A DNA stretch of 64,000 bases from Alicyclobacillus sp. SO9 (GTDB taxonomy: Bacteria; Bacillota; Bacilli; Alicyclobacillales; Alicyclobacillaceae), in NCBI RefSeq assembly GCF_016406125.1, contig NZ_CP066339.1:1550001-1614000 (forward strand). Direction: 5' to 3'. Shown piece after piece: positions 17,292 to 41,030 of the stretch (position 1 is the stretch's first letter; the number at the start of each line of letters is the position of its first letter). Position numbers and translations under genes: made by a program. Under the pieces are notes generated by a model. That model was not told where the DNA came from, did no database searches, and worked only from the letters and a program-made list of their open reading frames with translations.

Positions 17292-18209
17292 ATGCCAACA
17301 AATGTTGCTGCAGTTGGACAACAAAAAAACGCAAATCCTGCAGCTGTTGTAAAAGCGTACGTATCGATAACAAAGACTGGTATTACATTCGCAAATGTGA
17401 TGTCGACGTTTGCAGGGTTTTGGGTTGCAAGTCAGGGCCACCCAGAGTGGGGGGTGTTGCTCTGGACTCTGCTTGGAACAGGGCTTGTTGTAGCCGGAGG
17501 AGCAGCACTGAACAACTTTATTGATCGGGATATCGACGGGAGCATGAAACGCACTGAGGCACGTGCATTAGTAGCTGGAAGAGTTCGTCCGCGTCCTGCG
17601 TTTCTGCTCGGAATCACACTCGGCATCGTCGGATTGATTATTCTCATTACAATGACGAATGTCACCGCAGCGATTTGCGCATTTATTGGACTCGTATTCT
17701 ACGCCTATGTTTATACAGTTTGGTTGAAGCGTACGACCACGCTAAGCACGGTTCTTGGTGGAATCCCTGGAGCCATTCCTCCGTTGATTGGTTGGACGGC
17801 TGCAAACGGAGGACGTCTGGATTTAGCTGGACTCACGATTTTCTTCATCTTCTTCCTGTGGCAGATTCCTCATTTTCTTCCGTTTGCGATGAAGCGAACT
17901 GAGGAGTACCGCAAAGCAGGCATTCCGCTGCTTCCCGTAGTGGTCGGATTTTCGCAAACCAAATCTCAAGTTTTGAAATACACGATTGCCATGTTCTTTG
18001 TATCTCTGTTGCCCTACGCCCTTCGCGTGGAGGGGCTTTTGTACTTGGTGTTGGCAGGATCGCTCGGACTGGGATTTTTGTATCATGCCATTAAGGGTCA
18101 ATTCAGTAAAACAGTCGAGACCGACTTGATTTGGGCGAACAAAGTCTTTCGCTACTCATTGATTTACCTCACAACCATGTGTCTTGTACTCGTGATTGGC
18201 GTAATGTAA
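17292..18209 (+). CDS. ctaB: Protoheme IX farnesyltransferase
   Basis: A 305-residue polytopic UbiA-family prenyltransferase. It makes heme O from heme B for the terminal oxidases. The first Asp-rich substrate motif is NNFIDRDIDGSMKRTEARALVAGRV, the CtaB version of NDxxDxxxD, and the second half contains YTVWLKRTT and FLWQIPHFLPFAMKRTEEYRKAGIPLLPVV, both diagnostic. It starts at ATG 17292 behind AGGGGG. No ctaA or oxidase genes follow. Instead a repeat region starts within about 20 bases of the stop codon. Confidence 0.94.
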   Translation: MPTNVAAVGQQKNANPAAVVKAYVSITKTGITFANVMSTFAGFWVASQGHPEWGVLLWTLLGTGLVVAGGAALNNFIDRDIDGSMKRTEARALVAGRVRPRPAFLLGITLGIVGLIILITMTNVTAAICAFIGLVFYAYVYTVWLKRTTTLSTVLGGIPGAIPPLIGWTAANGGRLDLAGLTIFFIFFLWQIPHFLPFAMKRTEEYRKAGIPLLPVVVGFSQTKSQVLKYTIAMFFVSLLPYALRVEGLLYLVLAGSLGLGFLYHAIKGQFSKTVETDLIWANKVFRYSLIYLTTMCLVLVIGVM

Positions 18210-18223
18210 CTAAAGTCTGTAGC

Positions 18224-18553
18224 TGAGGCGGTTAGTGATATGACCGATGGGCCGCTTAGGGATTCGGACGGAGAAGCAGGCTGATAGTGATGAGGGAAGC
18301 AGCAGGCTGATAGTGATCCGAAAGATCACTATCGATTGCAGGGGCAATGAGATTGTGATCGCAATGATCACTAGCGCGACCCTGTCCTAAACATTAGTGT
18401 CATAAATGCACACTAATATGGGGAGTGCCGGGGTGGGACGTGGGTGATAGGGAGCAACGGGATCCCTAATGTAGACGGCCTGCGGGTGATAGTGAGAGAA
18501 TCGATCACTATCGGCTGGCGAGTATCATGATAGTGAGCAAAAGGATCATTAAC
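18224..18553 (+). repeat. Dispersed copy of the six-module 10-5-10 hairpin element
   Basis: Six 25-nt modules, each a 10-nt arm, 5-nt loop and 10-nt arm, occur at 18309-18333, 18351-18375, 18393-18417, 18446-18470, 18488-18512 and 18529-18553. Loops in order are CGAAA, GCAAT, TAAAT, AACGG, GAATC, AAAAG. The last three are identical and in the same order in every full unit of the array at 37.3-39.0 kb. The first module is a perfect palindrome (GATAGTGATC with GATCACTATC). A decayed start resembling the array's GAGGCAGTTAGTGAT lies at about 18225-18239. It is non-coding on both strands. Confidence 0.8.
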
Positions 18554-18559
18554 AAACGG

Positions 18560-18691
18560 GAACGGACTGCGAACGGACTGCGAACGGACTGCGAACGGAC
18601 TGCGAACGGACTGCGAACGGACTGCGAACGGACTGCGAACGGACTGCGAACGGACTGCGAACGGACTGCGAACGGACTGCGAACGGACTGC
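18560..18691 (+). repeat. Twelve perfect tandem copies of an 11-bp repeat
   Basis: The unit GAACGGACTGC is repeated twelve times without a single mismatch over 132 bp, directly after the hairpin element. The identity of all copies points to recent expansion or active homogenisation. Since 11 is not a multiple of 3, it is not a protein repeat. Confidence 0.97.
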
Positions 18692-23663: not shown

Positions 23664-23751
23664 GTCGTGATAATGGCAAACCAGTGGAAACACTGGGACG
23701 CAAAGCTACGGGTCTACGGACGCATGTCTATGATCGCCGGGTTGCCACTAT
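23664..23751 (+). promoter_or_regulatory. Cyclic di-GMP-I (GEMM) riboswitch aptamer
   Basis: The aptamer core is unmistakable. P2 is CCAGTG, a GAAA tetraloop and CACTGG (23681-23696). The invariant GGGACGCAAAGC spans 23695-23706. P3 is closed around GGTCTACGGACGC, and the 3-prime strand GGGTTGCCAC pairs with ATGGCAA (about 23673-23679) to form P1. The terminator at 23768 follows at once, so control of transcription elongation is likely. The regulated gene is the 157-residue unknown at 23925. A TTGACA -35 lies at 23614; the best -10 (TATAGT, 23640) leaves a long 20-base spacer. Confidence 0.92.
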
Positions 23752-35682: not shown

Positions 35683-36312
35683 GTGAAACGAACTATGTCT
35701 TTTTACTTATGGATTGTTATTATTTTGGGAGCGTTGGAGTTCCTCAGTGAACTTGTTTTGCAAGGGGTTCCGGGGGCGCTTCACAATACGTCTGTTGTGT
35801 TATATATTTTGGCTGGCGTCGCCACCTTCATGGTCGGTCGTAAAGCTCGTCAGGAGCGCGGTAATCCAATGGCAGCCGGAGCAGCGCTAGGCTCTGTGTT
35901 TGGCGTATTTGTTGGTGTTGCCCCATTCTTCATCCACGTGACTACAAAGGAACTCCAATCAAGGTTTCCACATTTGGGTGCTGCAAAACTCCAGCAAGGA
36001 GTCCAACTCGCAAATCAAGCATCGACACACATTGCCGGCCTTGTGACAAGTGTATTCATGCTGGCCATTATCGGTTTTATTATCAGCTTTATTGGCAGCG
36101 CCGTCACTGCAAGGCCGCCGGTCCAGGAAACGGACAAGCCGCAAGGGCAGAAAACAGCCAATGCGCAGGTTCAAGCGAAAGCAGAAGTGAAACAGGAAAC
36201 AGAAGTGAAACAGGAAACAGAAGTGAAACAGGAAACAGAAGTGAAACAGGAAACAGAAGTGAAACAGGAAACAGAAGAAACAAGCGTGGAAAAAGAAGCA
36301 GAAGAAACATGA
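35683..36312 (+). CDS. Four-helix membrane protein with EVKQET tandem repeats
   Basis: A 209-residue protein. It starts at GTG 35683 behind GGAGG. Membrane segments lie at about residues 6-28, 36-52, 65-87 and 122-142. From residue 150 there is a hydrophilic tail containing five perfect copies of Glu-Val-Lys-Gln-Glu-Thr (168-197), encoded by identical 18-bp repeats. The hydrophobic part resembles DUF4199-like or other small Bacilli membrane proteins, but I do not recognise it firmly. The tail probably lies in the cytoplasm or wall. Confidence 0.75.
   Translation: MKRTMSFYLWIVIILGALEFLSELVLQGVPGALHNTSVVLYILAGVATFMVGRKARQERGNPMAAGAALGSVFGVFVGVAPFFIHVTTKELQSRFPHLGAAKLQQGVQLANQASTHIAGLVTSVFMLAIIGFIISFIGSAVTARPPVQETDKPQGQKTANAQVQAKAEVKQETEVKQETEVKQETEVKQETEVKQETEETSVEKEAEET
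36184..36273 (+). repeat. Five perfect 18-bp coding repeats
   Basis: The unit GAAGTGAAACAGGAAACA occurs five times in a row, in frame. The perfect identity suggests a length-variable tract. Confidence 0.97.
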
Positions 36313-37198: not shown

Positions 37199-37244
37199 GG
37201 AACCTGCCGCGGAGTCAATTCGCAATTAGGCGGGTTCCTTTTTA
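37199..37244 (+). terminator. Intrinsic terminator after the DinB-like gene
   Basis: GGAACCTGCC (37199-37208) pairs with GGCGGGTTCC (37229-37238) with one G-T pair, followed by a run of T. It ends 80 bases before the hairpin array. Confidence 0.78.
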
Positions 37245-37323
37245 TATTCAAATTGCGTATCTAATGCGGTCTGGACGGTGCTGCCGGCTCGCTCCGAGAG
37301 TGGAATGAGACGCTGCCTGGACT

Positions 37324-38963
37324 GGCGTGAGGCAGTTAGTGATCGCAATGATCCTTAACGGGCGTTGGCCCAATCCGATTGTGATCGCAAAGATCCTTAA
37401 TGCTCCGTGCCCGGGATATTAGTGATCGCAAAGCTCCCTAATGTGGGAGGCGGCAGAGTGGGGCGTAGGTGATAGGGAGCAACGGGATCCCTATTCTGGA
37501 CGGCTACTGGGGATAGGGATCGAATCGATCACTATTCTTTGCCGAGCGTTGGGATAGGGAGCAAAAGGATCCTTAACCAATTGGCGCTGTGAAGAACGGA
37601 GCCCCGCTGAGAGCCTGCACCGGCTCCACTGCGCATCGAATTGGATGTAACAGTATGTAATGTTAATACATTCCGCTTGTGTTTGGTTAAATCTTCTTGA
37701 TCCCGCTCCCCTCACTGGCTGCCAGTATTGGCGTGAGGCAGTTAGTGATCGCAATGATCCCTAACGGGTGTTGGCCCAATTCGATTGTGATCGCAAAGCT
37801 CCCTAATGCTCCGTGCCCGGGACATTAGTGATCGCAAAGCTCCCTAATGTGGGAGGCGGCAGAGTGGGGCGTAGTTGATAGGGAGCAACGGGCTCCCTAT
37901 TCTGGACGGCTACTGGGGATAGGGATCAAAAGGATCCTTAACCAACTGGCACTACAAAGGCCCGAGCCCCGCTGAGAGCCTGCACCGGCTCCGCTGCGCA
38001 TCCAACTGGATTAAACAGTATTTAATGTTAATAGATTCCGATTGTGTTTGGTTAAATCTTGTTGATCCCGCTGCCGTCGCAGGCTGTCTGGATTGGCGTG
38101 AGGCAGTTAGTGATCGCAAAGCTCCCTAACGGGTGTTGGCCCAATTCGATTGTGATCGCAAAGATCCTTAATGCTCCGTGCCCGGGATATTAGTGATCGC
38201 AAAGCTCCCTAATGTGGGAGGCGGCAGAGTGGGGCGTAGTTGATAGGGAGCAACGGGATCCCTATTCTGGACGGCTACTGGGGATAGGGATCGAATCGAT
38301 CACTATTCTGTGACGAGGGTTGGGATAGGGAGCAAAAGGATCCTTAACCAACTGGCGCTGCGAAGAACGGAGCCCCGCTGAGAGCCTGCACCGGCTCCGC
38401 TGCGCATCCAACTGGATGCACCAGTATTTAATGGTAAGCAACGCCGCTTGTGTTTTGTTAAATCTTGTTGATCCCGCTGCCGTCGCAGGCTATCTGGATT
38501 GGCGTGAGGCAGTTAGTGATCGCAAAGCTCCTTAACGGGCGTTGGCCCAATCCGATTGTGATCGCAAAGCTCCCTAATGTGGGAGGCGGCAGAGTGGGGC
38601 GTAGTTGATAGGGAGCAACGGGATCCCTATTCTGGACGGCTACTGGGGATAGGGATCGAATCGATCCCTATTCTGTGACGAGGGTTGGGATAGGGAGCAA
38701 AAGGATCCTTAACCAACTGGCGCTACAAAGGCGCGAGCCCCGCTGAGAGCCTGCACCGACCCGCTGCGCATCGAATTGGATGTAACAGTATGTTATGTTA
38801 ATACATTCCGCTTATGTTTTGTTAAATCTTGTTGATCCCGCTGCCGTCGCAGGCTATCTGGATTGGCGTGAGGCAGTTAGTGATCGCAAAGATCCCTAAT
38901 GTGGGAGGCGGCAGAAGGGAGCGCGGGAGATAGGGGGCAACGGGATCATGAACAAACGGGATG
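37324..38963 (+). repeat. Tandem array of four and a half 365-406-bp units made of 10-5-10 hairpin modules
   Basis: Units begin with GGCGTGAGGCAGTTAGTGAT at 37324, 37730, 38095, 38501 and 38875. Each full unit has six 25-nt hairpins; in unit 1 they are at 37335-37359, 37377-37401, 37418-37442, 37471-37495, 37512-37536 and 37553-37577, with loops GCAAT, GCAAA, GCAAA, AACGG, GAATC and AAAAG. A spacer of about 150 bases follows, containing GCTGAGAGCCTGCACCG and TTGATCCCGCT. Units 2, 4 and 5 lack parts, always by fusion within modules. No frame is conserved through the units, so it is non-coding. Confidence 0.95.
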
Positions 38964-39017
38964 ACGGAGAAACTCGTTTGCATGGTACTTTGAATCAGCG
39001 GTTTTGGGCAAGTTCAT

Positions 39018-39662
39018 TCATCTCGGAACCTTCATCCAAGCAAGCCATTGCGGCGGCATCCCCGGCGCCCTTTTAGGTGGTGTTGGCAAATTGTTTGGAC
39101 AAGTCGTATTTACTGCTAGTTGAAAATCACCTCTAAAATAATCTGTGTAAGTCTGGCCCTGACTGGTGTATTTTACAACCAACCCGGGAATCGTATAGAG
39201 CCCTGGGCTCGATGCTTCTACGGTAATCACAGGTTGATAGAATATCTTATTCAGTGGCAGTGTTATGGGTAATGACTGAATCGGGTACGATGAATGGTTC
39301 TCGACCCACTTGAGAGACCCTCCCAGAAATTCTGGTCCACCCTTCATAGTGCCCATTCCAATTTGTTTCAGACCGTGGGGCAACGCGGCTGGCTTGACAG
39401 AGGTAACAATCACGGACATGTTGCGAGTGTGTTTGTTGTTTATGGGAAACGGATCGGAGCCGAAGTACATTATTTGGTCAGGTTTACCCATGACGCATTC
39501 GGTCCAACCATTTGCTTTGGACATTCCTCCTGCAGCCATCGCAAGGGGTCCATCGGTAGTAATTGAACTTGCAAAGAAATTCACGTAGACGCCACATCCT
39601 AAAAAGATGAGGGCAATCACAAGACTTGGAACAAAATAGCGTTTTTTTAGCTTCTGCAACAT
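39018..39662 (-). CDS. Secreted or membrane-anchored protein of unknown function (214 aa)
   Basis: The ATG at 39662 follows AAAGGAG. A basic start (MLQKLKKRYF) and one hydrophobic segment (VPSLVIALIFLGCGVYVNFF) act as signal or anchor. The external part has no membrane helix, only two Cys (in WTECVMG and NTTCPNN), and several beta-like stretches (GLYTIPGLVVKYTSQGQTYTDYF). I recognise no domain. It stands alone, tail first against the hairpin array. Confidence 0.75.
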   Translation of the reverse strand: MLQKLKKRYFVPSLVIALIFLGCGVYVNFFASSITTDGPLAMAAGGMSKANGWTECVMGKPDQIMYFGSDPFPINNKHTRNMSVIVTSVKPAALPHGLKQIGMGTMKGGPEFLGGSLKWVENHSSYPIQSLPITLPLNKIFYQPVITVEASSPGLYTIPGLVVKYTSQGQTYTDYFRGDFQLAVNTTCPNNLPTPPKRAPGMPPQWLAWMKVPR

Positions 39663-40902: not shown

Positions 40903-40922
40903 AACTATAAATCTAATAGCAA

Positions 40923-41012
40923 GGCGCTAGGGGTGCCCGCAGGGCTGAGAAGCAGAGAATGCTAACCCTTTCAGAACTCGATCTGGATAATACCAGCGGG
41001 AGGAAGTGCCGT
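40923..41012 (+). promoter_or_regulatory. TPP riboswitch (THI element)
   Basis: The conserved blocks are all here: CTAGGGGTGCCCGC, GGGCTGAGAAG, AACCCTTTCAGAAC and CTGATC-like GATCTGGATAATACCAGCG. A terminator follows at 41031, so thiamine pyrophosphate should stop transcription of the transporter genes. Confidence 0.97.
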
Positions 41013-41030
41013 CGAACTTGTTCGATCGAG

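What the first reader, a model, noticed from the sequence alone, without database searches (positions are those of the whole stretch)
37324..38963. Unrecognised non-coding element built of six ordered 10-5-10 hairpin modules, in a tandem array and as a dispersed copy at 18.2-18.6 kb
Each full unit contains six 25-nt modules with a 10-nt arm, 5-nt loop and 10-nt arm. The loop is fixed by module position (GCAAT, GCAAA, GCAAA, AACGG, GAATC, AAAAG). The copy after ctaB (18309-18553) has six modules in the same order; the last three loops are identical although the sequence between modules has diverged. Arm pairs covary: in module 6, arm position 6 is T with A in the 18-kb copy and G with C in the array. 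In module 5 the A opposite position 6 in units 1 and 3 becomes C in unit 4, restoring a pair. Covariation with constant loops argues for selection on the folded form, as RNA or as cruciform DNA. No coding frame survives through it. I know no described family with this geometry.
Basis: partly seen in the sequence, partly recalled or inferred. Interest (0 to 1): 0.85.

Follow-up and report, generated by a model that had tools for sequence, protein, structure and literature searches.

The report
Scattered six-site palindromic DNA scaffold
A roughly 250-base DNA element, a row of six palindromes set four or five DNA turns apart, is repeated over a hundred times between the genes of one bacterium and has a counterpart in a relative; it looks like a docking strip for an unknown protein that may help arrange the chromosome, and not like a folded RNA.

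Summary
The repeat is real and larger than reported: 121 units or fragments at 67 sites of one chromosome. The geometry holds; the covariation does not. On 34 representative units the paired cells equal the shuffled mean (77.6% against 77.6%) and RNAalifold finds no covarying pair; over 105 full units the two arms vary about independently. Conserved instead are a half-site, TARKGATC (T in 1258 and G in 1254 of 1260), and the spacing of the dyads, 41-42-53-42-41 bp (100 of 105 units within the two main values per gap), even between units whose spacers are unrelated. That is 4, 4, 5, 4, 4 helical turns. Alicyclobacillus sp. ALC3, another genus of the family, has tandem palindromes at 41 or 42 bp, and one array repeats 41-41-(50 to 52). 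Best reading: a double-stranded DNA scaffold of phased dyads for an unidentified dimeric protein, perhaps organising the chromosome: 37 of 67 sites lie in the origin-nearest quarter. It resembles sopC, Noc-site layouts and BIMEs, but no RAYT passed the cut-off, the dyads are neither parS nor NBS, and Rfam has no match.

The parts
18302..18558 (+). Dispersed copy, one complete six-module unit after the UbiA/ctaB-type gene 17292-18209
   Evidence: cmsearch 260 bits; gene by Pfam PF01040
18309..18333 (+). Module 1 of the 18-kb unit
   Evidence: alignment A1, sequence
18351..18375 (+). Module 2 of the 18-kb unit
   Evidence: alignment A1
18393..18417 (+). Module 3 of the 18-kb unit
   Evidence: alignment A1
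18446..18470 (+). Module 4 of the 18-kb unit
   Evidence: alignment A1
18488..18512 (+). Module 5 of the 18-kb unit; the module that insertion sequences split in four other units
   Evidence: alignment A1; insertions
18529..18553 (+). Module 6 of the 18-kb unit
   Evidence: alignment A1, sequence
37328..37582 (+). Array unit 1, six modules
   Evidence: cmsearch 250.9 bits
37734..37947 (+). Array unit 2, five modules (M5 and M6 fused)
   Evidence: cmsearch 169.6 bits; fusion read
38099..38353 (+). Array unit 3, six modules
   Evidence: cmsearch 244.3 bits
38505..38718 (+). Array unit 4, five modules (M2 and M3 fused)
   Evidence: cmsearch 192.9 bits; fusion read
38869..38958 (+). Array unit 5, two-module remnant
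   Evidence: cmsearch 53.4 bits; read

Best explanation
The unit is a double-stranded DNA element: six palindromic sites, each presumably for one dimer of a sequence-specific DNA-binding protein (half-site TARKGATC), held on one face of the helix at 4-4-5-4-4 turns in a mirror-symmetric layout, so that dimers can assemble side by side into one complex about 220 bp long. Units stand alone or in tandems of 2-5 between genes round the chromosome, denser on the origin side. I infer that the complexes serve chromosome organisation (segregation, anchoring or nucleoid occlusion), in the way that sopC serves the F plasmid and Noc sites serve Bacillus subtilis. Shown: copy number, anatomy, spacing rule, independent arms, absence of one exact dyad type outside units, origin-side bias. 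Inferred: that a protein binds, that it is dimeric and cooperative, and the function. About 0.65 for a phased protein-binding DNA array of some function; the confidence given is for that plus an organising role.
For: Gaps 41/42, 42/41, 53/52, 42/41, 41 in 100 of 105 full units. Of 1137 unit pairs with spacer identity under 0.35 (unrelated spacers score 0.34) 88% keep all five gaps within 1 bp. Half-site T in 1258 and G in 1254 of 1260. Arms independent. All 71 exact GTGATCN5GATCAC of the genome lie in fetched sequence: 69 in units, 2 in remnants of units split by an insertion sequence. Second genus with the same step: ALC3, 450 of 479 spacings of 41 bp in TGTCA-type arrays, 69 of 75 of 42 bp in GATC-type arrays, and one array of seven 41-41-(50 to 52) triads. 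Sites per quarter from origin to terminus 37, 11, 12, 7 (KS p 5e-7); ALC3 TGTCA arrays 9, 11, 8, 2 (p 0.010).
Against: No binding protein is known; no extra ParB-type protein exists in either genome (2 each, as in most of 41 family genomes). Only two lineages of the family have the arrays, so the function is dispensable or lineage-specific. Units share descent, full units were chosen by length, and modules were located by scoring the consensus, so spacing and half-site figures are somewhat flattered. In ALC3 tandem duplication alone gives a constant step. Origin bias could come from gene dosage or from insertion history. Paired cells exceed slid registers (77.6% against 30-42%), which a fold would also give.
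Confidence: 0.35

Rival explanations
1. REP/BIME-like extragenic palindromic repeat: a mosaic of palindromes kept mainly at gene ends, acting on supercoiling (gyrase, HU) or transcript ends, or merely tolerated there.
For: Over 100 copies, composite units, between genes; in the own genome convergent gaps are preferred (29 of 57 array gaps against 32 of 148 other gaps, p 2e-4) and divergent ones rare (4 of 62, 8 of 57). IS110-type elements insert into units, as insertion sequences do into REPs (PMC1525189, abstract). BIMEs bind several proteins including gyrase (PMC2817692, passages).
Against: No match to the RAYT model over its cut-off in three array-bearing genomes. Strict helical spacing without spacer conservation. 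No gene-end preference in ALC3 (7 of 24 against 15 of 60, p 0.92). Origin-side bias.
Confidence: 0.25
2. Selfish or MITE-like repeat moved in trans by an unidentified enzyme whose binding sites are the dyads (three sites at each inverted end).
For: Mirror-symmetric layout; near-identical units at unlinked sites, with homology often running 120-170 bp past the last module; array positions differ between own genome and ALC3 in the two orthologous neighbourhoods compared.
Against: No target-site duplication signal in 58 sites; no mobilising enzyme identified; spacing kept after sequence divergence implies lasting selection; no match in plasmid or phage records.
Confidence: 0.2
3. Binding sites of the resident nucleoid occlusion protein Noc with a changed specificity.
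For: Both genomes encode Noc (TIGR04285 366 and 366.6 bits, cut-off 315) yet have only 2 exact NBS cores each. In B. subtilis about 70 Noc sites lie round the chromosome but not at the terminus (PMC4331003, passages), much like the arrays.
Against: By my reading of the alignment against the residues named in PMC7383237 (passages), the own Noc keeps Q173, K179 and R201 (position 184 is H), so it should still bind NBS. Of four other family genomes without arrays, three have no exact NBS core and one has 2, so few cores are usual here. The dyads are not NBS-like.
Confidence: 0.08
4. Structured RNA or cruciform.
For: Dyad symmetry; paired cells well above slid registers.
Against: No covariation; strand-symmetric mismatches apart from the outermost pair; weak consensus fold; spacers of fixed length and free sequence; no Rfam match.
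Confidence: 0.05

Closest known systems
sopC (parS of the F plasmid), bound by SopB/ParB
   Same: Rows of about 43-bp repeats (twelve), with 16-bp inverted repeats each bound by a dimeric protein (PMC6238139, passages); here 41-42 bp steps with a dyad in each.
   Different: Here over 60 chromosomal sites, a fixed hexad with one wider gap, spacer sequence free, another dyad, and no extra ParB in the genome.
Noc-binding sites (NBS) of Bacillus subtilis
   Same: Many palindromic sites round the chromosome, few at the terminus (PMC4331003, passages).
   Different: NBS are single 16-bp sites with another sequence; here dyads come only in phased hexads or rows, and the exact NBS core occurs twice per genome.
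REP / BIME / REPIN repeats
   Same: Extragenic palindromes in high copy, composite units, targets of insertion sequences (PMC2817692 passages; PMC1525189 abstract).
   Different: No RAYT over cut-off, arms not covarying, helical spacing, every module a dyad in a fixed order.

Membership tests
Structured non-coding RNA | Compensatory changes in the stems | tested here: not met
Structured non-coding RNA | Match to a described family (Rfam 15) | tested here: not met
   no match on the array, up to E 5 in 37200-39100
REP/REPIN with RAYT | A REP-associated tyrosine transposase in the genome | tested here: not met
   NF047646 below cut-off in G000 and G020 (best E 0.146 and 0.117), none in G056; control: over cut-off in 1 of 14 genomes
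REP/BIME | High-copy extragenic palindromes | tested here: met
   121 units at 67 sites; 55 of 62 sites examined free of an overlapping called ORF, 7 with one of 104-436 aa reaching in
REP/BIME | Binding of gyrase or IHF | not testable with these tools
   needs biochemistry
Chromosomal parS (ParB) | TGTTTCACGTGAAACA site | tested here: not met
   exact or one-mismatch parS lie at 5182260-5185807 in the own genome and 2376788-2376953 in G020, apart from the units (core recalled)
sopC-like partition array | Row of about 43-bp repeats, each with an inverted repeat | tested here: met
   41/42-bp steps in both genera
sopC-like partition array | Cognate ParB-type protein beyond Spo0J and Noc | tested here: not met
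   2 ParB_N proteins in each of G000 and G020
Noc sites | ATTTCCCGGGAAAT-type core | tested here: not met
   module profile; 12-base core twice per genome (core recalled)
Noc sites | Spread with depletion at the terminus | tested here: met
MITE | Target-site duplication | tested here: not met
   58 sites, k-mers 5 to 10 no more than expected apart from k=9, 1 against 0.6
Any protein-bound scaffold | Occupancy by a specific protein | not testable with these tools
   needs pull-down or ChIP

The most novel reading that the evidence does not exclude
A new class of chromosome-organising element: a mirror-symmetric scaffold of six dyads at 4-4-5-4-4 helical turns, scattered over a bacterial chromosome with an origin-side bias and bound by a dedicated, still unknown dimeric protein; seen so far in two lineages of one family that share the geometry but neither core nor spacer sequence in full.
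Probability: 0.3. Interest if true: 0.8.

Novelty: new variant of a known kind. Interest (0 to 1): 0.6.

Why it matters
If the reading holds, these bacteria carry dozens of scattered docking sites for a chromosome-wide protein, with the geometry written in the spacing of sites rather than in sequence: a chromosomal counterpart of plasmid centromere arrays, and a possible clue to how lineages that encode Noc but have almost no exact Noc-site cores arrange division and segregation. It also shows that hairpin-like repeat families should be tested for independence of the arms and for helical phase before they are called structured RNA, and it gives an IS110-type element with a precise palindromic target.

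Tried and rejected
RNA or cruciform: rejected. The model R1 rests on the RNAalifold structure and served as a sequence profile only. Target-site duplications: none seen. Common tail: homology between many related sites runs 120-170 bp past the last module, but the commonest 10-mer of the tails is in 14 of 63 sites and is made of module letters. Flanking genes: an all-against-all comparison of 124 flanking ORFs gave four pairs only (an ABC-type pair, one IS256-type gene seen from both sides, an IS110-type pair and one more pair), so no common neighbour. Replication strand: 39 of 67 co-oriented, p 0.22. Exact module-5 pattern in the genome collection: 0 hits, own genome possibly left out. Module 4-5 pattern in viral contigs: 0. 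A unit against plasmid and phage records: no match. GTGTCAN3TGACAC pairs in 16 viral contigs and 8 other bacterial contigs lie in rows with steps mostly of 17-23 or 39-44 bp, not in regular 41-bp rows; I take them for another repeat. Extra ParB: none. Isolated modules: 3 weak ones (15 of 18) in 576 kb, all of it sequence chosen round units or the window.

Limits: one search scored 150 of 840 first-look candidates, so the number of divergent units is a lower bound; the count of one exact dyad (71 of 71 in or at units) argues that few typical ones are missing. Of its 142 rows I dropped 21 before counting: 20 opposite-strand echoes of listed units and one same-strand partial. (loops) and 87 use the 105 units of 250-260 nt among 121. 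One search covers 62 of 67 sites (5 lacked flank). ORFs are my own simple calls; short ORFs lying within 250 bp of an array were left out. One search used stricter filters. One search lists only the first places of G020, so GATC-type ALC3 arrays may be missing; therefore tests the 30 TGTCA-type arrays alone (p 0.010), while with all 36 gave p 0.003. Only 20 kb of the second contig was compared with plasmids.

Full report
What is there. The array in the window (37328-38958) and the copy at 18302-18558 belong to one family. A model built from 34 representatives finds five units or fragments in the array and the dispersed copy, and in the whole genome 142 rows, which reduce to 121 units or fragments at 67 sites after 21 echoes are removed. 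Of the 67 sites 31 hold one unit, 23 two, 10 three, one four and two five, always on one strand. All rows lie on the chromosome, none on the second contig.

Anatomy. A full unit is about 255 nt with six 25-nt dyads. In 105 full units the centre-to-centre gaps are 41/42 (79/26), 42/41 (60/45), 53/52/51 (90/14/1), 42/41/43/40 (65/37/2/1) and 41/42/40 (101/3/1). The layout is the same from both ends, which fits the weak opposite-strand matches at nearly the same places. The dyads share a half-site, TARKGATC, with T in 1258 and G in 1254 of 1260 half-sites; modules were located by scoring this consensus, so these figures are somewhat flattered. Three shortened units, two of them in the window, measure 213-214 nt, one period of about 42 bp less.

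Not a folded form. On the 34-unit alignment the six named hairpins have 77.6% paired cells against 77.6% in shuffles and a covariation score of 0.076 against 0.076; pairs with a double change number 11 against 12.6. RNAalifold gives -6.25 kcal/mol and no pair with a double change. Over 105 units complementarity at the variable positions is close to the expectation for independent arms; where it departs it is as often below (M1 at the K position, 11 against 28.2) as above (M3 at position -5, 51 against 39.8). Mismatches are 400 G-U against 242 A-C on the unit strand, but the outermost pair gives 212 and 53 of these and the rest is 188 against 189. Paired cells do exceed the slid registers (30-42%); a dyad-symmetric binding site gives that as well.

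What is constrained. Of 1137 unit pairs with spacer identity below 0.35 (unrelated spacers score 0.34) 88% keep all five gaps within 1 bp. The divergent units show it by eye: L072 (two units) and L078 have gaps of 41-42-53-42-41 and 41-42-53-41-41 with unlike spacers, although hairpin picking fails for several others in the same call. The gaps are multiples of 10.2-10.6 bp, whole helical turns. A spacing rule without sequence conservation is what proteins assembled on one face of double-stranded DNA need; it is hard to explain for RNA linkers. Caution: the units share descent and full units were chosen by total length.

A second lineage. Of 59 genomes of the order, the model finds weak matches in G020 alone besides the own genome (7 matches, best E 3.2e-6). 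GTGATCN5GATCAC occurs 71 times in the own genome, 49 in G020 and 0-4 in the other 57; the reversed control pattern occurs in none. AGTGTCAN3TGACAC (forward and reverse) occurs 176 and 152 times in G020, 1 and 13 in G056, and 0-2 elsewhere, none in the own genome. A pattern scan of the genome collection for tandem pairs gives 41 stretches: 30 of ALC3, 3 of the MAG YS1.bin19 and 8 of unrelated organisms. ALC3 has 36 arrays of two or more perfect dyads, 445 dyads in all, with steps of 41 bp (450 of 479 spacings up to 70 bp, TGTCA type) or 42 bp (69 of 75, GATC type); the array in L187 runs seven times through a gap of 50-52 followed by 41-41. This is the rule of the own unit, triads with a wider gap, on another core. 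In ALC3 constant steps could come from tandem duplication alone. In the two orthologous neighbourhoods that I compared (window 12.6-17 kb with L158; L065 with L170) the arrays lie in different gaps.

Placement. Of 62 sites with enough flank, 55 have no called ORF reaching into the array; in 7 an ORF of 104-436 aa does, one of them an inserted transposase gene. In the own genome convergent gaps are preferred (29 of 57 against 32 of 148, p 2e-4), in ALC3 not (7 of 24 against 15 of 60, p 0.92). From origin (dnaA at the start of C1) to terminus, sites per quarter are 37, 11, 12 and 7 (KS p 5e-7). In ALC3, with dnaA at 2.365-2.367 Mb, the 30 TGTCA arrays fall 9, 11, 8 and 2 (p 0.010). There is no bias of orientation with replication (39 of 67).

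Landing pads. Four units seen are split in module 5 by insertion sequences: three by IS110-type elements, two in the left arm at the same place and one in the mirror position in the right arm (L058, L063, L041), and one by a Mutator/IS256-type element (L033) (Pfam on the L058 and L033 proteins; the L041 protein by its printed sequence). Insertion sequences do the same with REPs (PMC1525189, abstract).

What it is not. No RAYT over cut-off in three genomes; not parS, which exists apart; not NBS; no target-site duplication; no Rfam family; no match in plasmid or phage records. Paper searches: Alicyclobacillus with repeat and palindromic, 106 papers, 10 listed, none of them about such a family by title; Alicyclobacillus with ALC3, 0; helical phasing with palindromic tandem repeats, 0; dispersed Firmicutes repeats, 0. 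The library holds open-licence papers only.

Mechanism. The best-supported reading is a phased array of dyads bound cooperatively by an unidentified dimeric protein. The closest working model is sopC, twelve 43-bp repeats with 16-bp inverted repeats for ParB (PMC6238139, passages); the closest distribution is that of Noc sites (PMC4331003, passages). Noc itself is an unlikely binder: three of its four NBS specificity residues are kept, although each array-bearing genome tested has only two exact NBS cores, which stays unexplained. The organising role is inference from placement; a BIME-like role at gene ends and a selfish repeat remain open.

Noticed in passing
L041 4329-6011, L058 4639-6320, L063 4774-6454: An IS110-type element sits in module 5 of three units, at the same arm position or its mirror image: a precise palindromic target.
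   Followed up: partly
G000 and G020 (ALC3), origin regions L200 and L198: Both genomes encode Noc with three of four NBS-type specificity residues in the own one, but each has only two exact TTTCCCGGGAAA cores.
   Followed up: partly
window 18560-18691: Twelve perfect copies of an 11-bp repeat (GAACGGACTGC) directly after the 18-kb unit; short tandem repeats also follow some other units.
   Followed up: no
window 36177-36298: An 18-bp tandem repeat of GAAACAG type, 5.6 copies, overlapping the 3' part of the ORF 35683-36312.
   Followed up: no
window 23665-23749 and 40919-41021: A c-di-GMP-I and a TPP riboswitch above gathering score.
   Followed up: no
L214-L229 (viral contigs): Rows of GTGTCAN3TGACAC palindromes at steps of about 17-23 or 39-44 bp in 16 viral contigs; apparently another repeat family.
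   Followed up: partly
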